DNA of 64,000 nucleotides from Alcaligenaceae bacterium (lineage in GTDB: Bacteria > Pseudomonadota > Gammaproteobacteria > Burkholderiales > Burkholderiaceae_B): positions 124,001-188,000 of the forward strand of contig JACCEP010000004.1 of NCBI GenBank assembly GCA_013416395.1, read 5' to 3'. The translations under genes were made by a program, and so were the position numbers. The first letter of the stretch is position 1, and the number at the start of each line of letters is the position of its first letter. The notes beneath the pieces were generated by a model. It worked only from the letters and a program-made list of their open reading frames with translations. It made no database searches and was not told where the DNA came from. Shown piece after piece: positions 44,474 through 50,855 of the stretch.

Positions 44474-44641
44474 ATGTTTTTGCATAACACGACGCTCTTG
44501 GTTGTTTTTGTGCTGGGCGTCATTTTTTCACTGATCGGTTTTGGGTTTCGCGACCGCAATCCTGGCGTGATCCTGATGGGTGTCGGCTTCCTCGCCACCT
44601 TATTTGTGGTGATCCAGAAGGCTATCGTAACGTTTGGCTGA
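44474..44641 (+). CDS. 55-residue two-TM membrane protein
   Basis: A short frame encoding MFLHNTTLLVVFVLGVIFSL followed by IGFGFRDRNPGVILMGVGFLATLFVVIQKA, two membrane helices with a charged turn. ATG at 44474 has AAAGAGAA about 7 nt upstream. It lies 61 nt before the DUF3348 gene and may be read into that operon. Function is unknown. Confidence 0.6.
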   Translation: MFLHNTTLLVVFVLGVIFSLIGFGFRDRNPGVILMGVGFLATLFVVIQKAIVTFG

Positions 44642-44702: not shown

Positions 44703-45458
44703 ATGGTGCAAGAACCGCCTCGGCGCACAGGTTTCAGCGGCCCCCCGCTCGTTCGCCTGCTTGCTCGCCTGACAGACACCACGTTTTACGAGCCCCGGCA
44801 AGACGTTCCCAATCGGCTCAGCCAATGGCTGGGCTGGGCTGACGCCATTGCGCTGTCTTCTGCGCTGAAGGGCAACCCTTCTTCTGTGCCATCCGGGTTG
44901 CAGCCACCGGCCGAAGCAGGAAAAATCGAATATGACCGGGTTCGTGCTGCACTCGAACTGGCCATTACGGGCAACGAAAGGCCAGCGACAGCGCAGCAGG
45001 AAGCCAGGTTGCGCGCCGCTGCCCGGCGTGGCCCCACTGCTTCGGCGGCGGTTGTCGACTATGCAAGCTACCGCCGTCGTTACGTGTTACTGCAGCAATC
45101 CATGGAAAGCAGCATTGCCACGTTACGTGGCAGATTGCGAACCTTGTTGGCCTCCATCTCGCCCCAGGCAGCTCGCCTTGCCGTTGTGGATGCCGCGATG
45201 GAGCAGGCGTTGAGCGAACGTGAACTCGTGCTGTTTGCAGACATCCCCAAGTCGCTTGAAGCACACTTCGAGCGGCTGCGTGAGGGTGCAGGGCAGACCA
45301 TACCGGCAACTGCTGGGTCTTCTTCCCCGTCCGCAGGGCCTACCGAATGGCTGGTTGTGTTTAAGCAAGATATGCAGCGTGTCCTGTTTGCTGAGCTAGA
45401 TACCCGTTTACAGCCTGTCGAGGCGCTTCTGGCAGCCTTGCACGAAGGTAAAACCTGA
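44703..45458 (+). CDS. DUF3348-family protein, first gene of motor-like operon
   Basis: A 251-residue soluble, mostly helical protein matching, by memory of the family, DUF3348 (opening MVQEPPRRTGFSGPPLVRLL). Long helices such as YRRRYVLLQQSMESSIATLRGRLRTLLAS dominate, with a poorly conserved linker (TAGSSSPSAG). ATG at 44703 is preceded by a weak ribosome site; a frame from 44634 overlaps the small membrane gene. The next gene follows 5 nt after the stop. Its operon partner is a MotA-like protein, so it may be a cytoplasmic regulator or rotor-side partner; inference only. Confidence 0.85.
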   Translation: MVQEPPRRTGFSGPPLVRLLARLTDTTFYEPRQDVPNRLSQWLGWADAIALSSALKGNPSSVPSGLQPPAEAGKIEYDRVRAALELAITGNERPATAQQEARLRAAARRGPTASAAVVDYASYRRRYVLLQQSMESSIATLRGRLRTLLASISPQAARLAVVDAAMEQALSERELVLFADIPKSLEAHFERLREGAGQTIPATAGSSSPSAGPTEWLVVFKQDMQRVLFAELDTRLQPVEALLAALHEGKT

Positions 45459-45463
45459 ATATT

Positions 45464-48340
45464 ATGAATCGACTCCTTCATTTTCTTATTTTTATTGCCG
45501 GGCTGGCCGCAGTGTTCTGGATCGGCACGCACTACGTCGCTTCAAACCCTCTGGCTCTGGCTGTTACCGCGCTGATTGGCGTGGTGTACCTGGTTGGTGC
45601 ATTTGAGCTTTACCGTTATCGTCAGGCAAGTGACGCACTCACAGCGGCACTCGAAGGCCTGACGGAAAGCGTAAGCGCCCTGGATGACTGGGTGGTTCGT
45701 TTGCCTTCCAGCCTGCGAAATGCCGTGCGGTTGCGTGTCGAAGGTGAGCGTGTGGGCCTGCCTGGGCCGGCGCTTACCCCCTATCTGGTTGGTCTGCTGG
45801 TTCTTCTGGGCATGTTGGGTACGTTTCTGGGTATGGTGGCTACGCTGCGCGGTACCGGGTTGGCGCTTGAAAGCGCCACAGACCTTCAGGCCATCCGCGC
45901 GTCGCTTTCTGCTCCGGTCAAAGGGCTGGGTTTTGCCTTTGGCACTTCGGTGGCAGGGGTGGCAACCTCTGCCATGCTGGGTTTGCTGTCTGCCTTGAGC
46001 CGGCGCGACCGAGTCAAAGCCGCCCAACTGCTTGATACCAACATTGCAACAACGTTGCGACCTTATTCCTTGGCGCACCAACGCGAAGAGCGCTTAAGGC
46101 TGTTGCAGCGCCAAGCCGATACCCTGCCCGCTGTGGTTGATCAGATGCAGGCCATGATGGTCGCCCTGGCTCAGCACAGTAAAACACTGGCCGAGCAGTT
46201 GTCCGCCAGTCAGGAGGCCTTTCATAGCAAGGCGGAAGCCACCTATACGCGCCTGGCAACCTCCGTGGAGCAATCGCTGCGCGATGGTATCGCCGAAGGT
46301 GCGCGGGCGGCTGGGTCGGCCATTCAGCCCGTGGCAGAGTCCACCATGAGCCTTCTCGTTCGAGAAAATGCGGCCTTGCACGAATCGGTCCGGCAGGCAG
46401 TGCAGCAGCAGCTTGATGGCATGGCGGTGCAAGCCGAGGGTACGGCTTCCAAAGTGGCAGGTATCTGGGCAACTTCACTTCAAGCGCATCAACAAACAAA
46501 TGCCAGCCTTGCCAGCGAACTGCGCGGCTCATTTGAAACGGCCGCAGGAGCATTTGGGCAGCGTTCCGACCATCTTTTTGAAAGCATTTCTGAGCGTCTG
46601 GCCGGCGTGGCTGAAACCCTGTCGCAGGCATGGCAGCAAGGGTTGTTGCACCATGAGCGCAGCAGCGAGAAACTGGCCAGTGATAATCAGCAGGCCCTAG
46701 CCTCGGCCACCGACGCGTTACGACAGCATGCCGAATCGCTGGCTTTAGCGATGACACAATCACACGGTGACCTGAAAGCGCAGTTGGCGTCTCAAGACGC
46801 GCAGCGGCTTGCCGCTTGGGTCGATACGCTGTCAGAGATGACATCGGCACTGCGTGGGGAGTGGGAGCAGGCCACATCATATACTGAAAGCAGACAGCAA
46901 CAAATTTGCGACGCATTGGCCCAAACCGCCAGCCAAATCTCCACTGAAACAAAATCAAATGCCACGGCAACCATGGCTGAGATCAGCCGCCTGGTTGAAG
47001 CGGCTGCCGAAGCCCCCAAAGCGGCGGCGGCACTTCAGGAAACCCTGGTCGCGCAAGATCAACAGCGTTTGCAGGCATGGACGGATTCACTTGCCAGCAC
47101 GGCTGCTACGCTGCGTGAGCAATGGGAGCAGGCGGGTACGCATACGGCCGCCCATCAACAGCAAATCTGTGAAACCTTGATCCAGACGGCCAGCGAGATC
47201 TCTGCGCAGACCAAATCTAATGCCACGGCAACCATGGCCGAGATCAACCGCCTGGTTGAAGCGGCTGCCGAAGCCCCCAAAGCGGCGGCAGCACTCCAAG
47301 AAACCCTGGTCGCGCAAGATCAACAGCGTTTGCAGGCATGGACGGATTCACTTGCCAGCACGGCTGCTACGCTGCGTGAGCAATGGGAGCAGGCGGGTAC
47401 ACATACGGCCGCCCATCAACAGCAAATCTGCGAAACCTTGATCCAGACGGCCAGCGAGATCTCTGCGCAGACCAAATCCAATGCCACGGCAACCATGGCC
47501 GAGATCAGCCGCTTGGTTGAAGCGGCTGCCGAAGCCCCCAAAGCGGCGGCAGCACTTCAGGAGACCCTGGCAGAGCAAGATCAACAACGTTTGCAGGCAT
47601 GGACAGAGTCGCTTGCCAGCACCGCCGCTACGCTGCGTGAGCAATGGGAGCAGGCGGGTACGCATACGGCCGCCCATCAACAGCAAATTTGCGACGCTCT
47701 GGCTCAGACTGCACTTGATATTTCCCGAGAAACCAAGGCCAATGCCGACGCGACGATTGCTGAAATTTCCAAGCTGCTGCAAGCCGCATCAGAAGCACCT
47801 CAAGCCGCCGCAGATGTAGTGACCGAGGTGCGGCAGAAGCTGTCTGACAGCCTTGCTCGCGATACCGCCATGCTGGAAGAGCGCGGCCGTTTGCTGGAGA
47901 CCGTGGGTACCTTGCTTGATGCCGTCAACCATGCCGCTTCTGAGCAACGCAGTGCGGTTGATGCGCTGGTCACGACCTCAGCCGACATGCTTGATCGCGC
48001 CAGCGCACAATTTACCGATCATGTTCAAACTGAAAGCGGCAAACTCACCGGCGTTGCTGCCCAAGTGTCAGGCAGTGCGGCCGATGTGGCCATGATGGCT
48101 GAAACCTTTAGTGCGGCTGTGCAGAAGTTTGGTGAGTCGAACGTGTCATTGCAGGCGCATCTGGAACGTATCGAAGCCGCTCTGGAAAAATCCACGACCC
48201 GCAGCGATGAGCAGTTAGCCTACTACGTGGCACAGGCTCGTGAGGTTATTGACCTGAGCATGCTGTCTCAAAAGCAGATTATCGAAGAACTCCAACAACT
48301 GGCTGGTGGCCGCGTGCCCGCCAGCGCTGATGCCACATGA
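45464..48340 (+). CDS. DUF802-type MotA/TolQ/ZorA-like membrane protein with repeat tail
   Basis: A 958-residue protein. TM helices are near residues 4-21, 29-48, 105-128 and 150-178. The last pair resembles the MotA/ExbB/ZorA proton-channel core: LLGMLGTFLGMVATLRG (about 114-130) and SAPVKGLGFAFGTSVAGVATSAMLG (about 149-173). A cytoplasmic helical tail of about 750 residues follows, with four 87-residue tandem units (444-791), likely coiled coil. The next gene is a MotB-like partner, overlapping by 4 nt. It is probably the stator channel subunit of a rotary or torque-transmitting machine. The DUF802 assignment is from memory. Confidence 0.85.
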   Translation: MNRLLHFLIFIAGLAAVFWIGTHYVASNPLALAVTALIGVVYLVGAFELYRYRQASDALTAALEGLTESVSALDDWVVRLPSSLRNAVRLRVEGERVGLPGPALTPYLVGLLVLLGMLGTFLGMVATLRGTGLALESATDLQAIRASLSAPVKGLGFAFGTSVAGVATSAMLGLLSALSRRDRVKAAQLLDTNIATTLRPYSLAHQREERLRLLQRQADTLPAVVDQMQAMMVALAQHSKTLAEQLSASQEAFHSKAEATYTRLATSVEQSLRDGIAEGARAAGSAIQPVAESTMSLLVRENAALHESVRQAVQQQLDGMAVQAEGTASKVAGIWATSLQAHQQTNASLASELRGSFETAAGAFGQRSDHLFESISERLAGVAETLSQAWQQGLLHHERSSEKLASDNQQALASATDALRQHAESLALAMTQSHGDLKAQLASQDAQRLAAWVDTLSEMTSALRGEWEQATSYTESRQQQICDALAQTASQISTETKSNATATMAEISRLVEAAAEAPKAAAALQETLVAQDQQRLQAWTDSLASTAATLREQWEQAGTHTAAHQQQICETLIQTASEISAQTKSNATATMAEINRLVEAAAEAPKAAAALQETLVAQDQQRLQAWTDSLASTAATLREQWEQAGTHTAAHQQQICETLIQTASEISAQTKSNATATMAEISRLVEAAAEAPKAAAALQETLAEQDQQRLQAWTESLASTAATLREQWEQAGTHTAAHQQQICDALAQTALDISRETKANADATIAEISKLLQAASEAPQAAADVVTEVRQKLSDSLARDTAMLEERGRLLETVGTLLDAVNHAASEQRSAVDALVTTSADMLDRASAQFTDHVQTESGKLTGVAAQVSGSAADVAMMAETFSAAVQKFGESNVSLQAHLERIEAALEKSTTRSDEQLAYYVAQAREVIDLSMLSQKQIIEELQQLAGGRVPASADAT
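46793..47836 (+). repeat. Four tandem 261-bp repeats inside the MotA-like gene
   Basis: Units run 46793-47053, 47054-47314, 47315-47575 and 47576-47836, each exactly 261 bp (87 codons), each with a core QDQQRLQAWTDSLASTAATL-like motif and KSNATATMAEI. Marker ATG (or ATT) codons in each unit lie at 46973, 47234, 47495 and 47756, exactly 261 apart. Units 2 and 3 differ at only about a dozen positions; unit 1 and the end of unit 4 have diverged. The repeat keeps the reading frame. Confidence 0.95.
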
Positions 48341-49083
48341 GCGAGCATCTTGATGAGGGCGTGGAGCCTGCCGCGCCTGTCTGGGCGGTGTTTGGCGACT
48401 TAATGTCTGTACTGCTGGGCGCATTTGTGCTTGTGCTGGTCGGCGTGATCGGTGTCCAGCTTGAGCTTTCTGCCCGGCTTGAAAACGAGATTACGCAACG
48501 ACAGGAAGAAACCCAGCGTCGCAAATCACTGGAAGAAGCGCTGGCCCGACAAATTGCCGAAGGCAGCGTTACGCTGACCGATGGCCGCATTGGCATCAGC
48601 GGCAGCGTGCTGTTTGCACTGAACTCTGCCGGACTGCAGGCAGAAGGTCGTGAAATACTCAACAGCCTGGTCGAGCCGCTTAAGACCTATCTCGAGACCC
48701 ATGACGAGGTACTGATGATTAGCGGGTTTACCGATGACAGACCGATCCATGAGGGCAATCTGCGTTTTTCCGATAACTGGGATCTGTCGGCACAGCGCGC
48801 ATTGACTGTCACGCGTGCACTGATTGAGGAAGGTGTTCCATCGGCCAGCGTGTTTGCTGCAGCCTTCGGCCCGGAGCAACCTGTCAGTTCAAACGATGAC
48901 GAAGAAGGGCGGGCAAAGAACCGGCGGGTGGAGATCTCGCCGGTGCCCAAGCTGACGGCGAAGGCGGTCGCTGATCAGGCAGAAGAAGGGAAGCCGGTTG
49001 ACGCAAATGCGCCAGCTGACACAGCGCTGCCGGTCGCCGCATCACCGTCGGCCCAAGCAGAGACGGCGCATGGCAATCCCTAA
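48337..49083 (+). CDS. MotB/ZorB-like OmpA-domain stator subunit
   Basis: A 248-residue protein with one N-terminal TM (about residues 15-40, VWAVFGDLMSVLLGAFVLVLVGVIGV). An aspartate at about position 21 sits where MotB has its proton-carrying Asp in the helix. A coiled linker and an OmpA/peptidoglycan-binding domain follow: MISGFTDDRPIHEGNLRFSDNWDLSAQRA and GRAKNRRVEIS. It should anchor to peptidoglycan and pair with the DUF802 protein. Start overlaps the previous stop by 4 nt. The C-terminal 50 residues are proline/alanine-rich. Confidence 0.9.
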   Translation: MSEHLDEGVEPAAPVWAVFGDLMSVLLGAFVLVLVGVIGVQLELSARLENEITQRQEETQRRKSLEEALARQIAEGSVTLTDGRIGISGSVLFALNSAGLQAEGREILNSLVEPLKTYLETHDEVLMISGFTDDRPIHEGNLRFSDNWDLSAQRALTVTRALIEEGVPSASVFAAAFGPEQPVSSNDDEEGRAKNRRVEISPVPKLTAKAVADQAEEGKPVDANAPADTALPVAASPSAQAETAHGNP

Positions 49084-49621
49084 AAATAAAGAGGCCACCG
49101 ATCACAAGGGCAAACAGGATGACAGCTCTATTCGCAGTGTGTTTTCTACGCCTACAGACGGCGCTTCGCCTGACGACCTGAAATACACTCGTACATCGCC
49201 AACTGTGCCGCCGCCCGCGCAACCAGGGCCTGTGGCCGAACTACTTGCCTACCTCAACAACCAGTCAGTGGCTGGCAAAGCCCAGGCCTGGCAGCAGGGT
49301 GACGCCTCGTCAACCCTCTCTTACCCCGAACTGCCGGCAATTGATTACTTCCAGAAAACCTGGGAGCGCCTTCGTACACGGCGTCAATTACAGACATCGC
49401 AGGAGCAGGTGCCCGACAATGCTGGCCCGTTGAATTCGAGCAATCTGGTGCATCGATCATTGTCTCTGATGCGTGAAGTTTCGCCAGGCTACCTGCAGCA
49501 CTTCCTTACCTATGTGGATACGCTGTCATGGCTGGAAGAAACCGACGCTTCTGACGAGCCCGCTGGAAAGGGCGGTAAAGCCAAGGCAGCAAAGGCCAAA
49601 AAAGCGTCAGCTAGTCGATGA
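49070..49621 (+). CDS. DUF2894-family protein, last gene of motor-like operon
   Basis: A 183-residue soluble protein. The conserved part, by memory of DUF2894, is about residues 60-165 (LLAYLNNQSVAGKAQAW, YFQKTWERLRTRRQLQ, LNSSNLVHRSLSLMREVSPGYLQHFLTYVDTLSWLE). The ends are low-complexity, with a lysine/alanine-rich tail. ATG at 49070 overlaps the OmpA gene by 14 nt, showing coupling. Function is unknown; it probably works with the motor proteins. Confidence 0.85.
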   Translation: MAIPKNKEATDHKGKQDDSSIRSVFSTPTDGASPDDLKYTRTSPTVPPPAQPGPVAELLAYLNNQSVAGKAQAWQQGDASSTLSYPELPAIDYFQKTWERLRTRRQLQTSQEQVPDNAGPLNSSNLVHRSLSLMREVSPGYLQHFLTYVDTLSWLEETDASDEPAGKGGKAKAAKAKKASASR

Positions 49622-49758: not shown

Positions 49759-50547
49759 TCATGGCACCTTATGACGCCACGCCTCAGTGCCGAATTTCTC
49801 TTCAATAAGTCGGTCGGCAGCAGCCAGTTCGGCTGGCAATAAACCACCGTCTTGCAAACCATGCAGCCGCCGGAACGTAGCAATAATTTGCTGAATAATG
49901 GCTGCCCGTGGCAAACCTGTTTGACTGCGTAGCGGGTCAACACGCTTGGCGGCCGACGTAGTGCCTTTGTCAGAGAGTTTTTCTCGGCCGATGCGCAAGA
50001 CCTGAAGCATCTTGTTTACATCAATGTCATAAGCCATGGTCACATGGTGCAGCACCGCCCCACCACGATGAGCCTGCGCTGCGCCGCCGATCTTTCCGCC
50101 CTCGGACGTAATGTCGTTCAATGGCTTGTACCAGGCCTTGATGCCAAGCTCGTTCAGTGCCTCAAGCACTGACGCGTCCATGTACGCATACGCATCGCGA
50201 AAGCTCATTCCGGCAATGAGTGACTTCGGCGCATAAATGGAATAGGTAATGGTGTTGCCAGGTTCGATAAACATGGCACCACCGCCGGTGATGCGGCGCA
50301 CAACCTCAATGTCATGTTGTTGTGCTGCTTCGATGTCGACTTCGTTTTTTACTGACTGAAAGATGCCGATGACAACAGCCGATGATGCCCATTCCCAAAT
50401 CCGAAGCGTTGGCGCGCGACGCCCGGCAGCAACCTCTTCCAGCAGCACCTGATCGAGGGCCATGTGTTGTTGCGGCGATTGGGGTGATGTGTGCACCAAT
50501 TGCCAATTATGGTCGTTCCAGCCCGTGCGTATGATTTCGTTGCTCAT
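49759..50547 (-). CDS. Lipoate-protein ligase family, catalytic domain only
   Basis: A 262-residue BPL/LplA-type ligase core. Motifs are VVRRITGGGAMFIEPGNTITYSIYAP, the DVNKMLQVLRIGREKLSDKGTTSAAKRVDPLR stretch, and a lipoate-pocket region near LRIWEWASSAVVIGIFQS. It attaches lipoate (or octanoate) to lysines of dehydrogenase E2 or GcvH. The C-terminal accessory domain usual in bacterial LplA is encoded separately by the upstream gene, overlapping by 4 nt. Confidence 0.9.
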   Translation of the reverse strand: MSNEIIRTGWNDHNWQLVHTSPQSPQQHMALDQVLLEEVAAGRRAPTLRIWEWASSAVVIGIFQSVKNEVDIEAAQQHDIEVVRRITGGGAMFIEPGNTITYSIYAPKSLIAGMSFRDAYAYMDASVLEALNELGIKAWYKPLNDITSEGGKIGGAAQAHRGGAVLHHVTMAYDIDVNKMLQVLRIGREKLSDKGTTSAAKRVDPLRSQTGLPRAAIIQQIIATFRRLHGLQDGGLLPAELAAADRLIEEKFGTEAWRHKVP

Positions 50548-50855
50548 GCCAGCGCCCTCTGTACAACGACCGCAACGCCTGCGGCAGTGATGCCGAACAT
50601 CATTACGTCTGATCCAATGACGGCATTGATTGCCTGTTCCAGTTGCGTTTGAGTAACGTCGTGAGGCAATCCATTGAGTGCTGCATTCATGGCCTCCAGG
50701 GTTTCAGGTGGCTCCAGAAAAAAGTCACCTGACAACTGCACATTGCTCAGGCAACCCTCTACAACCTGCAGGTCTACGACGACCAGCTTGCCTTCAGGGA
50801 TCTTGTATTCACCATGGCGCGCCGATGCGTCAGTGGGCTTGTCGGATGTATTCAT
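50544..50855 (-). CDS. Stand-alone lipoate ligase accessory (LplB-like) domain
   Basis: A 103-residue protein resembling the C-terminal domain of LplA, as in two-part archaeal LplA-LplB enzymes: HGEYKIPEGKLVVVDLQVVEGCLSNVQLSGDFFLEPPETLEAMNAAL. The start is ATG at 50855, and its stop overlaps the ligase start by 4 nt. It is needed for adenylation in the two-part enzymes. Family assignment is by pattern. Confidence 0.85.
   Translation of the reverse strand: MNTSDKPTDASARHGEYKIPEGKLVVVDLQVVEGCLSNVQLSGDFFLEPPETLEAMNAALNGLPHDVTQTQLEQAINAVIGSDVMMFGITAAGVAVVVQRALA

What the first reader, a model, noticed from the sequence alone, without database searches (positions are those of the whole stretch)
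44703..49621. ZorAB/MotAB-like stator operon flanked by DUF3348 and DUF2894 proteins
Seen: four overlapping or nearly touching genes. Gene 2 has a MotA/ExbB-like TM pair (LLGMLGTFLGMVATLRG and GLGFAFGTSVAGVATS) and a giant helical tail. Gene 3 has a TM with an Asp where MotB carries protons, then an OmpA peptidoglycan-binding domain. Known: this pair of features defines ion-driven 5:2 motors (flagellar, Tol/Exb, gliding, Zorya defence). Inference: this is a rotary, envelope-anchored machine using two uncharacterised partners in place of known rotor or nuclease subunits. No flagellar, Tol or ZorC/D/E gene is near.
Basis: partly seen in the sequence, partly recalled or inferred. Interest (0 to 1): 0.85.

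Follow-up and report, generated by a model that had tools for sequence, protein, structure and literature searches.

The report
Zorya type III phage-defence cassette
These four genes are an intact copy of a known bacterial anti-phage system, Zorya type III, which builds a motor-like membrane machine; how that machine stops phages without any recognisable nuclease is still an open question.

Summary
In detail: four overlapping or nearly touching genes (44703-49621, + strand) encode DUF3348, a MotA/ExbB-like protein with a very long tail, a transmembrane-Asp/OmpA protein, and DUF2894. But the "two uncharacterised partners" are the defining parts of Zorya type III, named and tested against phages in 2021 (PMC8565338). 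All four proteins match PADLOC type III models.

Added here: (1) the motor aspartate is D in 77 of 77 rows and 78 of 78 matches in a second, partly overlapping set. (2) DUF3348, DUF2894 and the ZorA tail tip are strong in the same 23 of 399 genomes of the order. (3) ZorA has a conserved motor, a length-variable shaft and a conserved, type III-specific tip. (4) The four genes diverge together (r 0.85-0.92), less in step with rpoB (0.65-0.72). (5) No defence island was seen. (6) No enzyme family or solved fold was recognised for either partner.

Verdict: new member of a known kind; the interest lies in the unsolved effector step.

The parts
44703..45458 (+). DUF3348 protein, 251 aa, predicted all-helical (called ZorG3 in PADLOC-DB, ZorF in the text of Payne 2021)
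   Evidence: PF11828 2.4e-74; PDLC00658 8.1e-84; AlphaFold2 pLDDT 84, pTM 0.79
45464..48340 (+). ZorA3: MotA/ExbB-like motor subunit with a long tail, 958 aa
   Evidence: PDLC00650 E=0, 1441 bits; two DUF802 stretches, the best at residues 325-371
45803..45970 (+). ZorA residues 114-169: MotA/ExbB-type TM pair
   Evidence: residues 101-175 are the most conserved stretch (commonest residue 0.83-0.91 of rows); profile of residues 1-210 matches one solved chain, 8vvn_C, E 1.1e-5
46952..47694 (+). 87-residue (261-bp) tandem repeats, 2.8 copies, in the length-variable shaft of the ZorA tail
   Evidence: Tandem Repeats Finder, 94% matches; ZorA of G759 is exactly 87 residues shorter with one QQQIC motif fewer
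47774..48337 (+). ZorA residues 771-958: conserved, type III-specific tail tip
   Evidence: commonest residue 0.65-0.87 and gap fraction 0.00 over residues 776-950; strong match only to ZorA3 models, ZorA1 E 0.009; strong in 23 of 399 genomes
48337..49083 (+). ZorB3: single TM plus OmpA peptidoglycan-binding domain, 248 aa
   Evidence: PDLC00651 2e-111; NF006547 364 bits over cut-off 194; matches 45 solved chains, mostly MotB, PomB and OmpA-like, best 6ysl_A 2.4e-14
48397..48399 (+). codon of ZorB Asp21, predicted ion-carrying residue
   Evidence: D in 77 of 77 rows and 78 of 78 matches in the named loci
48610..48924 (+). OmpA-family peptidoglycan-binding domain of ZorB
   Evidence: PF00691 1.2e-18, residues 92-196; D133 and R154 77 of 77
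49070..49621 (+). DUF2894 protein, 183 aa (called ZorF3 in PADLOC-DB, ZorG in the text of Payne 2021)
   Evidence: PF11445 2.1e-38; PDLC00652 1e-49; conserved NAGPLN...M...SP.Y core

Best explanation
This is an intact Zorya type III anti-phage cassette (identity about 0.95), on a contig of 373 kb in a genome whose relatives are Burkholderiales. Mechanism, mostly inferred from types I and II: five ZorA and two ZorB form an ion-driven motor in the inner membrane. ZorB Asp21 carries ions and the ZorB OmpA domain grips peptidoglycan. Phage injection disturbs the envelope and turns the motor on, and the signal travels down the bundled ZorA tail. In type III the tail is a motor, a length-tolerant shaft and a fixed, highly conserved tip; I infer that the tip is where the output is delivered. 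ZorF and ZorG, two small proteins always present with the motor, act as adaptors or activators, since neither looks like an enzyme. Shown here: gene set, order, co-occurrence, conservation of the Asp and of the OmpA site, shaft/tip architecture. Shown by others: phage protection by a type III relative in E. coli; 5:2 structures of types I and II. Not shown in anything I found: stoichiometry, sensing and effector step of type III (mechanism confidence about 0.4).
For: All four proteins match type III models. Payne 2021 tested a Stenotrophomonas nitritireducens type III cassette in E. [quoted passage not shown] Types I and II form ZorA5B2 and need peptidoglycan binding, ion flow and the tail (PMC11890865, abstract and passages). 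Asp21: 77 of 77 and 78 of 78 (the two sets overlap). OmpA-site D133 and R154: 77 of 77 and in all 77 of 78 matches that reach them. Obligate module: DUF3348, DUF2894 and the ZorA tip are strong in the same 23 of 399 genomes. Of the best 80 loci found by the ZorA N-terminus alone, 80 hold DUF3348 and 76 DUF2894; the other four run into a contig end (ranges). Four genes co-diverge, r 0.85-0.92, n = 72. Patchy: 7 of 274 (class, DUF3348), 23 of 399 (order), 65 of 200 (family, DUF2894).
Against: Native-host data are weak: in Burkholderia cenocepacia K56-2 the first one or two Zorya III genes changed expression on infection, but knock-down of predicted defence genes had no effect against that one phage (PMC12584637). 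The cassette lacks typical defence surroundings: of 127 flanking proteins from 33 loci only single ones matched mad2, mad3, mad8 and homing-endonuclease models at E 1e-10, besides a DUF3348 protein of a cassette itself. Tree-distance partial correlations do not single out the tip as partner of DUF3348 (tip 0.06; motor 0.37, proximal tail 0.40, ZorB 0.25) and only mildly for DUF2894 (tip 0.21; proximal tail 0.35, ZorB 0.28). Full-length ZorA matched no solved chain at E 0.01. No complex was modelled.
Confidence: 0.85

Rival explanations
1. A resident envelope machine with a housekeeping role, which protects from phage only incidentally or when over-expressed. It is kept by vertical descent within genera.
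For: 5 of 5 genomes of the own genus carry it. Of six genera with three or more genomes that are monophyletic for rpoB, four are so for the cassette; the own genus, the seventh, is monophyletic in neither tree. No defence island. No relative in viral contigs and only 27 of 72,556 plasmid records, all 366 kb or larger (ZorB at E 1e-20). Reported as highly conserved (at least 90% of genomes of the species) in Ralstonia solanacearum (PMC13064858). No effect of knock-down of predicted defence genes in B. cenocepacia.
Against: No strong match in 376 of 399 genomes of the order and no match in 135 of 200 of the family. 16 of 51 well-supported cassette splits conflict with well-supported rpoB splits, and G165, from outside the order, sits among order members. 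Flanking genes differ between genera and within the own genus. Direct phage protection by a relative in E. coli.
Confidence: 0.12
2. An ordinary stator for a flagellum, Tol-Pal or TonB system that merely lies beside unrelated DUF genes.
For: ZorB matches MotB, MotD and PomB-type proteins in sequence.
Against: Among the 25 NCBIfam models listed (of 41), all but its own family are below their cut-offs, e.g. MotD 95.8 of 283 bits. ZorB has OmpA, not ExbD/TolR, as its only Pfam match. ZorA matches ZorA3 at 1441 bits. Both DUFs and the ZorA tip keep company in the same 23 of 399 genomes.
Confidence: 0.02
3. A decayed copy without function.
For: None seen.
Against: Intact frames; dN/dS 0.06-0.16 against G759; the window departs at only 2 of 198 positions that are at least 95% conserved in the other rows.
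Confidence: 0.01

Closest known systems
Zorya type III (ZorA3-ZorB3 with DUF3348 and DUF2894 proteins; Payne et al. 2021, PMC8565338)
   Same: All four genes, flanking arrangement and domain content; [quoted passage not shown]
   Different: Nothing that sets it outside the type. This copy has 87-residue repeats in the ZorA shaft; ZorA length varies within the type.
Zorya types I and II (ZorABCD; ZorABE)
   Same: Motor genes, TM Asp, OmpA domain, long tail. ZorA and ZorB match type I/II models weakly; a ZorA profile matches 8vvn_C and ZorB matches 8qyd_F, the last of 45 chains. That both entries are Zorya structures is recalled.
   Different: No ZorC, ZorD or ZorE match; the tail tip matches only ZorA3 strongly; the partners show no nuclease or helicase match.
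MotAB/PomAB, ExbBD/TolQR stators
   Same: Motor architecture and, for MotB/PomB, the OmpA domain, which gives ZorB its best solved-structure matches.
   Different: Below the curated cut-offs listed; different operon and partners.

Membership tests
Zorya type III | ZorA of the MotA/ExbB kind with long tail | tested here: met
   PDLC00650, 1441 bits, E = 0
Zorya type III | ZorB with TM Asp and OmpA domain | tested here: met
   PDLC00651 2e-111; OmpA 1.2e-18; Asp21 77 of 77 and 78 of 78
Zorya type III | DUF3348 and DUF2894 genes flanking zorAB | tested here: met
   same order read in 73 of 83 loci
Zorya type III | protection against phage | not testable with these tools
   shown for a Stenotrophomonas relative (PMC8565338, passages), not for this copy
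Zorya (any type) | ZorA:ZorB 5:2 complex | not testable with these tools
   only monomers can be predicted; reported for types I and II (PMC11890865)
Zorya type I or II | ZorC/ZorD or ZorE beside zorAB | tested here: not met
   none among the four proteins (E 0.1) or 51 other window proteins (E 1e-10)
flagellar MotAB | score over a curated MotB-type model | tested here: not met
   best such model, MotD, 95.8 bits, cut-off 283
Tol/Exb | ExbD/TolR-type second subunit | tested here: not met
   only Pfam match of the second subunit at E 0.1 is OmpA

The most novel reading that the evidence does not exclude
Zorya type III is a Zorya that carries no nuclease of its own. The motor's output is handed, through the conserved ZorA tail tip and the two obligate helical adaptors, either to a resident host protein or directly to a mechanical or membrane-depolarising action. 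It would thus separate the sensing motor from the DNA-cutting step that types I and II rely on.
Probability: 0.35. Interest if true: 0.65.

Novelty: new member of a known kind. Interest (0 to 1): 0.33.

Why it matters
Type III was reported 6,401 times, against 7,742 for types I and II (PMC8565338), yet I found no mechanistic study of it in the open-licence library (searches; the 2025 Nature paper on Zorya structure, cited in PMC12505986, was not held). In PMC11890865 types I and II end in DNA damage by recruited nucleases; type III has none that I can recognise. The fixed tip on a length-variable shaft and the complete co-occurrence of three type III-specific parts give concrete deletion targets to settle what a Zorya motor's tail does.

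Tried and rejected
Fold comparison: the DUF3348 model gave no Foldseek match at E 0.001 and a best VIA Z of 7.3 (rmsd 7.0 A, 165 aligned), below the 13 or so that the tool gives as noise for helical bundles; only residues 64-251 were really tested. The DUF2894 model is poor (pLDDT 68, pTM 0.35) and gave one match at E 9.5. So a new fold is not claimed. Sequence profiles of both gave no solved chain at E 1.

Enzyme families: Pfam scans of 80 DUF3348 and 77 DUF2894 members at E 0.05 gave, besides the DUFs, only weak matches in one or two members each. An unrecognised enzyme is not excluded.

Tail-tip docking by tree-distance partial correlation did not point to the tip; I treat the test as uninformative, but it is no support.

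Empty-site test with the neighbouring lipoate ligase: found in only 2 of 10 genomes, so no empty site could be shown.

A fifth gene: among 81 loci, no side-and-strand-matched immediate neighbour recurs in more than 2 genera; within three genes the most widespread cluster (c0, single linkage, probably a large paralogous family, not identified) is found near 20 loci of 9 genera on varying sides and strands. A 55-residue membrane ORF just upstream is found only in the window and G759. Both rejected as cassette parts.

Viral origin: 0 of 65 pattern matches in viral contigs encode a relative. Phage records gave only partial OmpA matches (0 of 16 cover 80% of ZorB).

Errors of mine: one search picked antisense frames in GC-rich loci and was redone. 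The rpoB comparison used wrong reading frames for some genomes (rpoB correlations of 0.16-0.30 there are void) and was redone. Some minus-strand references lack the first codon.

Full report
Observation. The four genes are there as described. The first gene's likely start is ATG 44703 (an in-frame TTG lies at 44634); the last gene's likely start is ATG 49070 (an in-frame TTG at 48998). ZorA and ZorB overlap by 4 bp, an overlap found in 59 of 73 complete loci, which suggests translational coupling. Pfam finds DUF3348, DUF802, OmpA and DUF2894.

Identity. PADLOC's models name all four as Zorya type III: ZorA3 E = 0, ZorB3 2e-111, DUF3348 8.1e-84, DUF2894 1e-49. Type I and II models match the motor proteins far more weakly. 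Payne et al. 2021 (PMC8565338, passages read) defined type III by these genes, reported 6,401 cases, cloned one from Stenotrophomonas nitritireducens into E. coli BL21-AI and saw protection.

Motor test. In 77 aligned ZorB rows Asp21 is D in all 77. In the named loci it is D in all 78 ZorB matches (78 of 80 loci had one). The two sets overlap: at least nine contigs have the same length in both. W16, F19, L22, M23 and G28 are also 77 of 77, as are D133, N147, S151 and R154 of the OmpA domain; that this D and R grip peptidoglycan in OmpA-like domains is recalled. ZorA residues 110-174 hold 26 positions invariant in 34 rows, and the profile of residues 1-210 matches a single solved chain, 8vvn_C, a MotA/TolQ/ExbB domain protein (E 1.1e-5). 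Full-length ZorA matches none at E 0.01. ZorB matches 45 solved chains, best MotB and PomB; 8qyd_F is the last (E 4.8e-6). That 8vvn and 8qyd are Zorya structures is recalled. The 5:2 stoichiometry was not testable.

A module that does not come apart. In the draw of 399 genomes of the order, DUF3348 gave 25 matching genomes, two of them weak and without a cassette (L148, L149). DUF2894 gave 24, one weak. The ZorA tip gave 30, seven weak at E above 1e-5. The strong sets are the same 23 genomes, the window's included. They hold DUF3348 in 80 of 80 and DUF2894 in 76 of 80, and the other four (L191, L199, L225, L228) run into a contig end. No other gene keeps a fixed place beside the cassette: no immediate neighbour, matched for side and strand, recurs in more than 2 genera among 81 loci, though neighbours are shared within several genera.

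Architecture of ZorA. Along 80 aligned rows the motor (residues 101-175) and the last 180 residues (776-950) are strongly conserved (commonest residue 0.83-0.91 and 0.65-0.87). Residues 476-700 are missing in about 70% of rows. Apart from two copies cut by contig ends, ZorA length runs from 555 to 1258 residues. In this window the shaft holds 87-residue tandem repeats, and G759 is 87 residues shorter with one repeat motif fewer. The tip matches only ZorA3 models well. Inference: motor and tip do conserved work, and the shaft is a spacer whose length drifts by repeat gain and loss.

Partners. DUF3348 is predicted as an all-helical protein (pLDDT 84, pTM 0.79); DUF2894 as a few helices with low confidence. 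No solved structure or enzyme family was found for either, and the phage-protein library has no match for them at E 0.01. They differ more between genomes than the motor does (median 0.51 and 0.58, against 0.29 for ZorB, n = 72) but stay under purifying selection (dN/dS 0.11-0.32 over four pairs of loci). An adaptor or activator role is inferred, in line with the suggestion in PMC8565338 that they regulate ZorAB.

Descent. rpoB was found in 79 of 80 genomes asked. Among the 72 with all four genes and rpoB, cassette proteins correlate with one another at r 0.85-0.92 and with rpoB at 0.65-0.72. On 26 genomes a control, rpoC against rpoB, gives 0.97, where the cassette proteins give 0.77-0.86 (searches are void for rpoB). 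24 of 51 well-supported cassette splits are in the rpoB tree and 16 conflict with well-supported rpoB splits. Of six multi-genome genera that are monophyletic for rpoB, four are so for the cassette; the own genus is monophyletic in neither tree. So it is mostly inherited within genera and sometimes transferred as a block. No relative was found in viral contigs; 27 of 72,556 plasmid records carry it, all 366 kb or larger.

Surroundings. Of 51 other window proteins, three match the mad3 model and one a CARF model at the threshold. Of 127 flanking proteins in 33 other loci, single proteins match mad2, mad3, mad8 and a homing endonuclease model; the two ZorG3 rows are most likely the DUF3348 protein of L131, which my ORF labels had missed. 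I used E 1e-10 and made no comparison with type I or II loci. This is not a defence island.

Function in native hosts. In B. cenocepacia K56-2 the first one or two genes of Zorya III changed expression on infection with one temperate phage, yet none of the predicted defence genes mattered in the CRISPRi screen (PMC12584637, passages). PMC13064858 (passages) gives type III Zorya in R. solanacearum as an example of a highly conserved system. A defence role of this copy is therefore likely but not proven.

Verdict. An intact member of a known, experimentally supported but mechanistically unexplained defence type.

Noticed in passing
44703-45458 and 49070-49621: Naming conflict: the text of Payne 2021 calls DUF3348 ZorF and DUF2894 ZorG, PADLOC-DB labels them the other way round.
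   Followed up: yes
48337-49083: NCBIfam still names this ZorB3 family 'hypothetical protein' (NF006547, PRK09040; 364 bits, cut-off 194), so genomes may carry unlabelled Zorya III.
   Followed up: no
46952-47694: 261-bp repeats in zorA; G759 has 87 residues fewer, so tail length seems to change by whole repeats between related species.
   Followed up: partly
44474-44641: 55-residue hydrophobic ORF upstream of DUF3348, present only in the window and G759 among the loci searched.
   Followed up: yes
49759-50855: Lipoate ligase catalytic protein with a separate small ORF resembling the ligase C-terminal domain; the former found in 2 of 10 genomes searched, own included.
   Followed up: partly
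L148, L149: Weak DUF3348 matches (E 5e-6 and 4e-5) in long frames of G413 and G282 without any Zorya gene: possible distant relatives in another setting, or chance.
   Followed up: no
control genome Corynebacterium glutamicum: The DUF2894 model rings over its cut-off in a Gram-positive control genome; not examined.
   Followed up: no
G000:C8:37471-38100 and G000:C42:237908-238504: Two further proteins of the own genome match the ZorB1 model (48.6 and 24.1 bits); the model also rings in E. coli and B. subtilis, so these may be ordinary MotB-type proteins.
   Followed up: no
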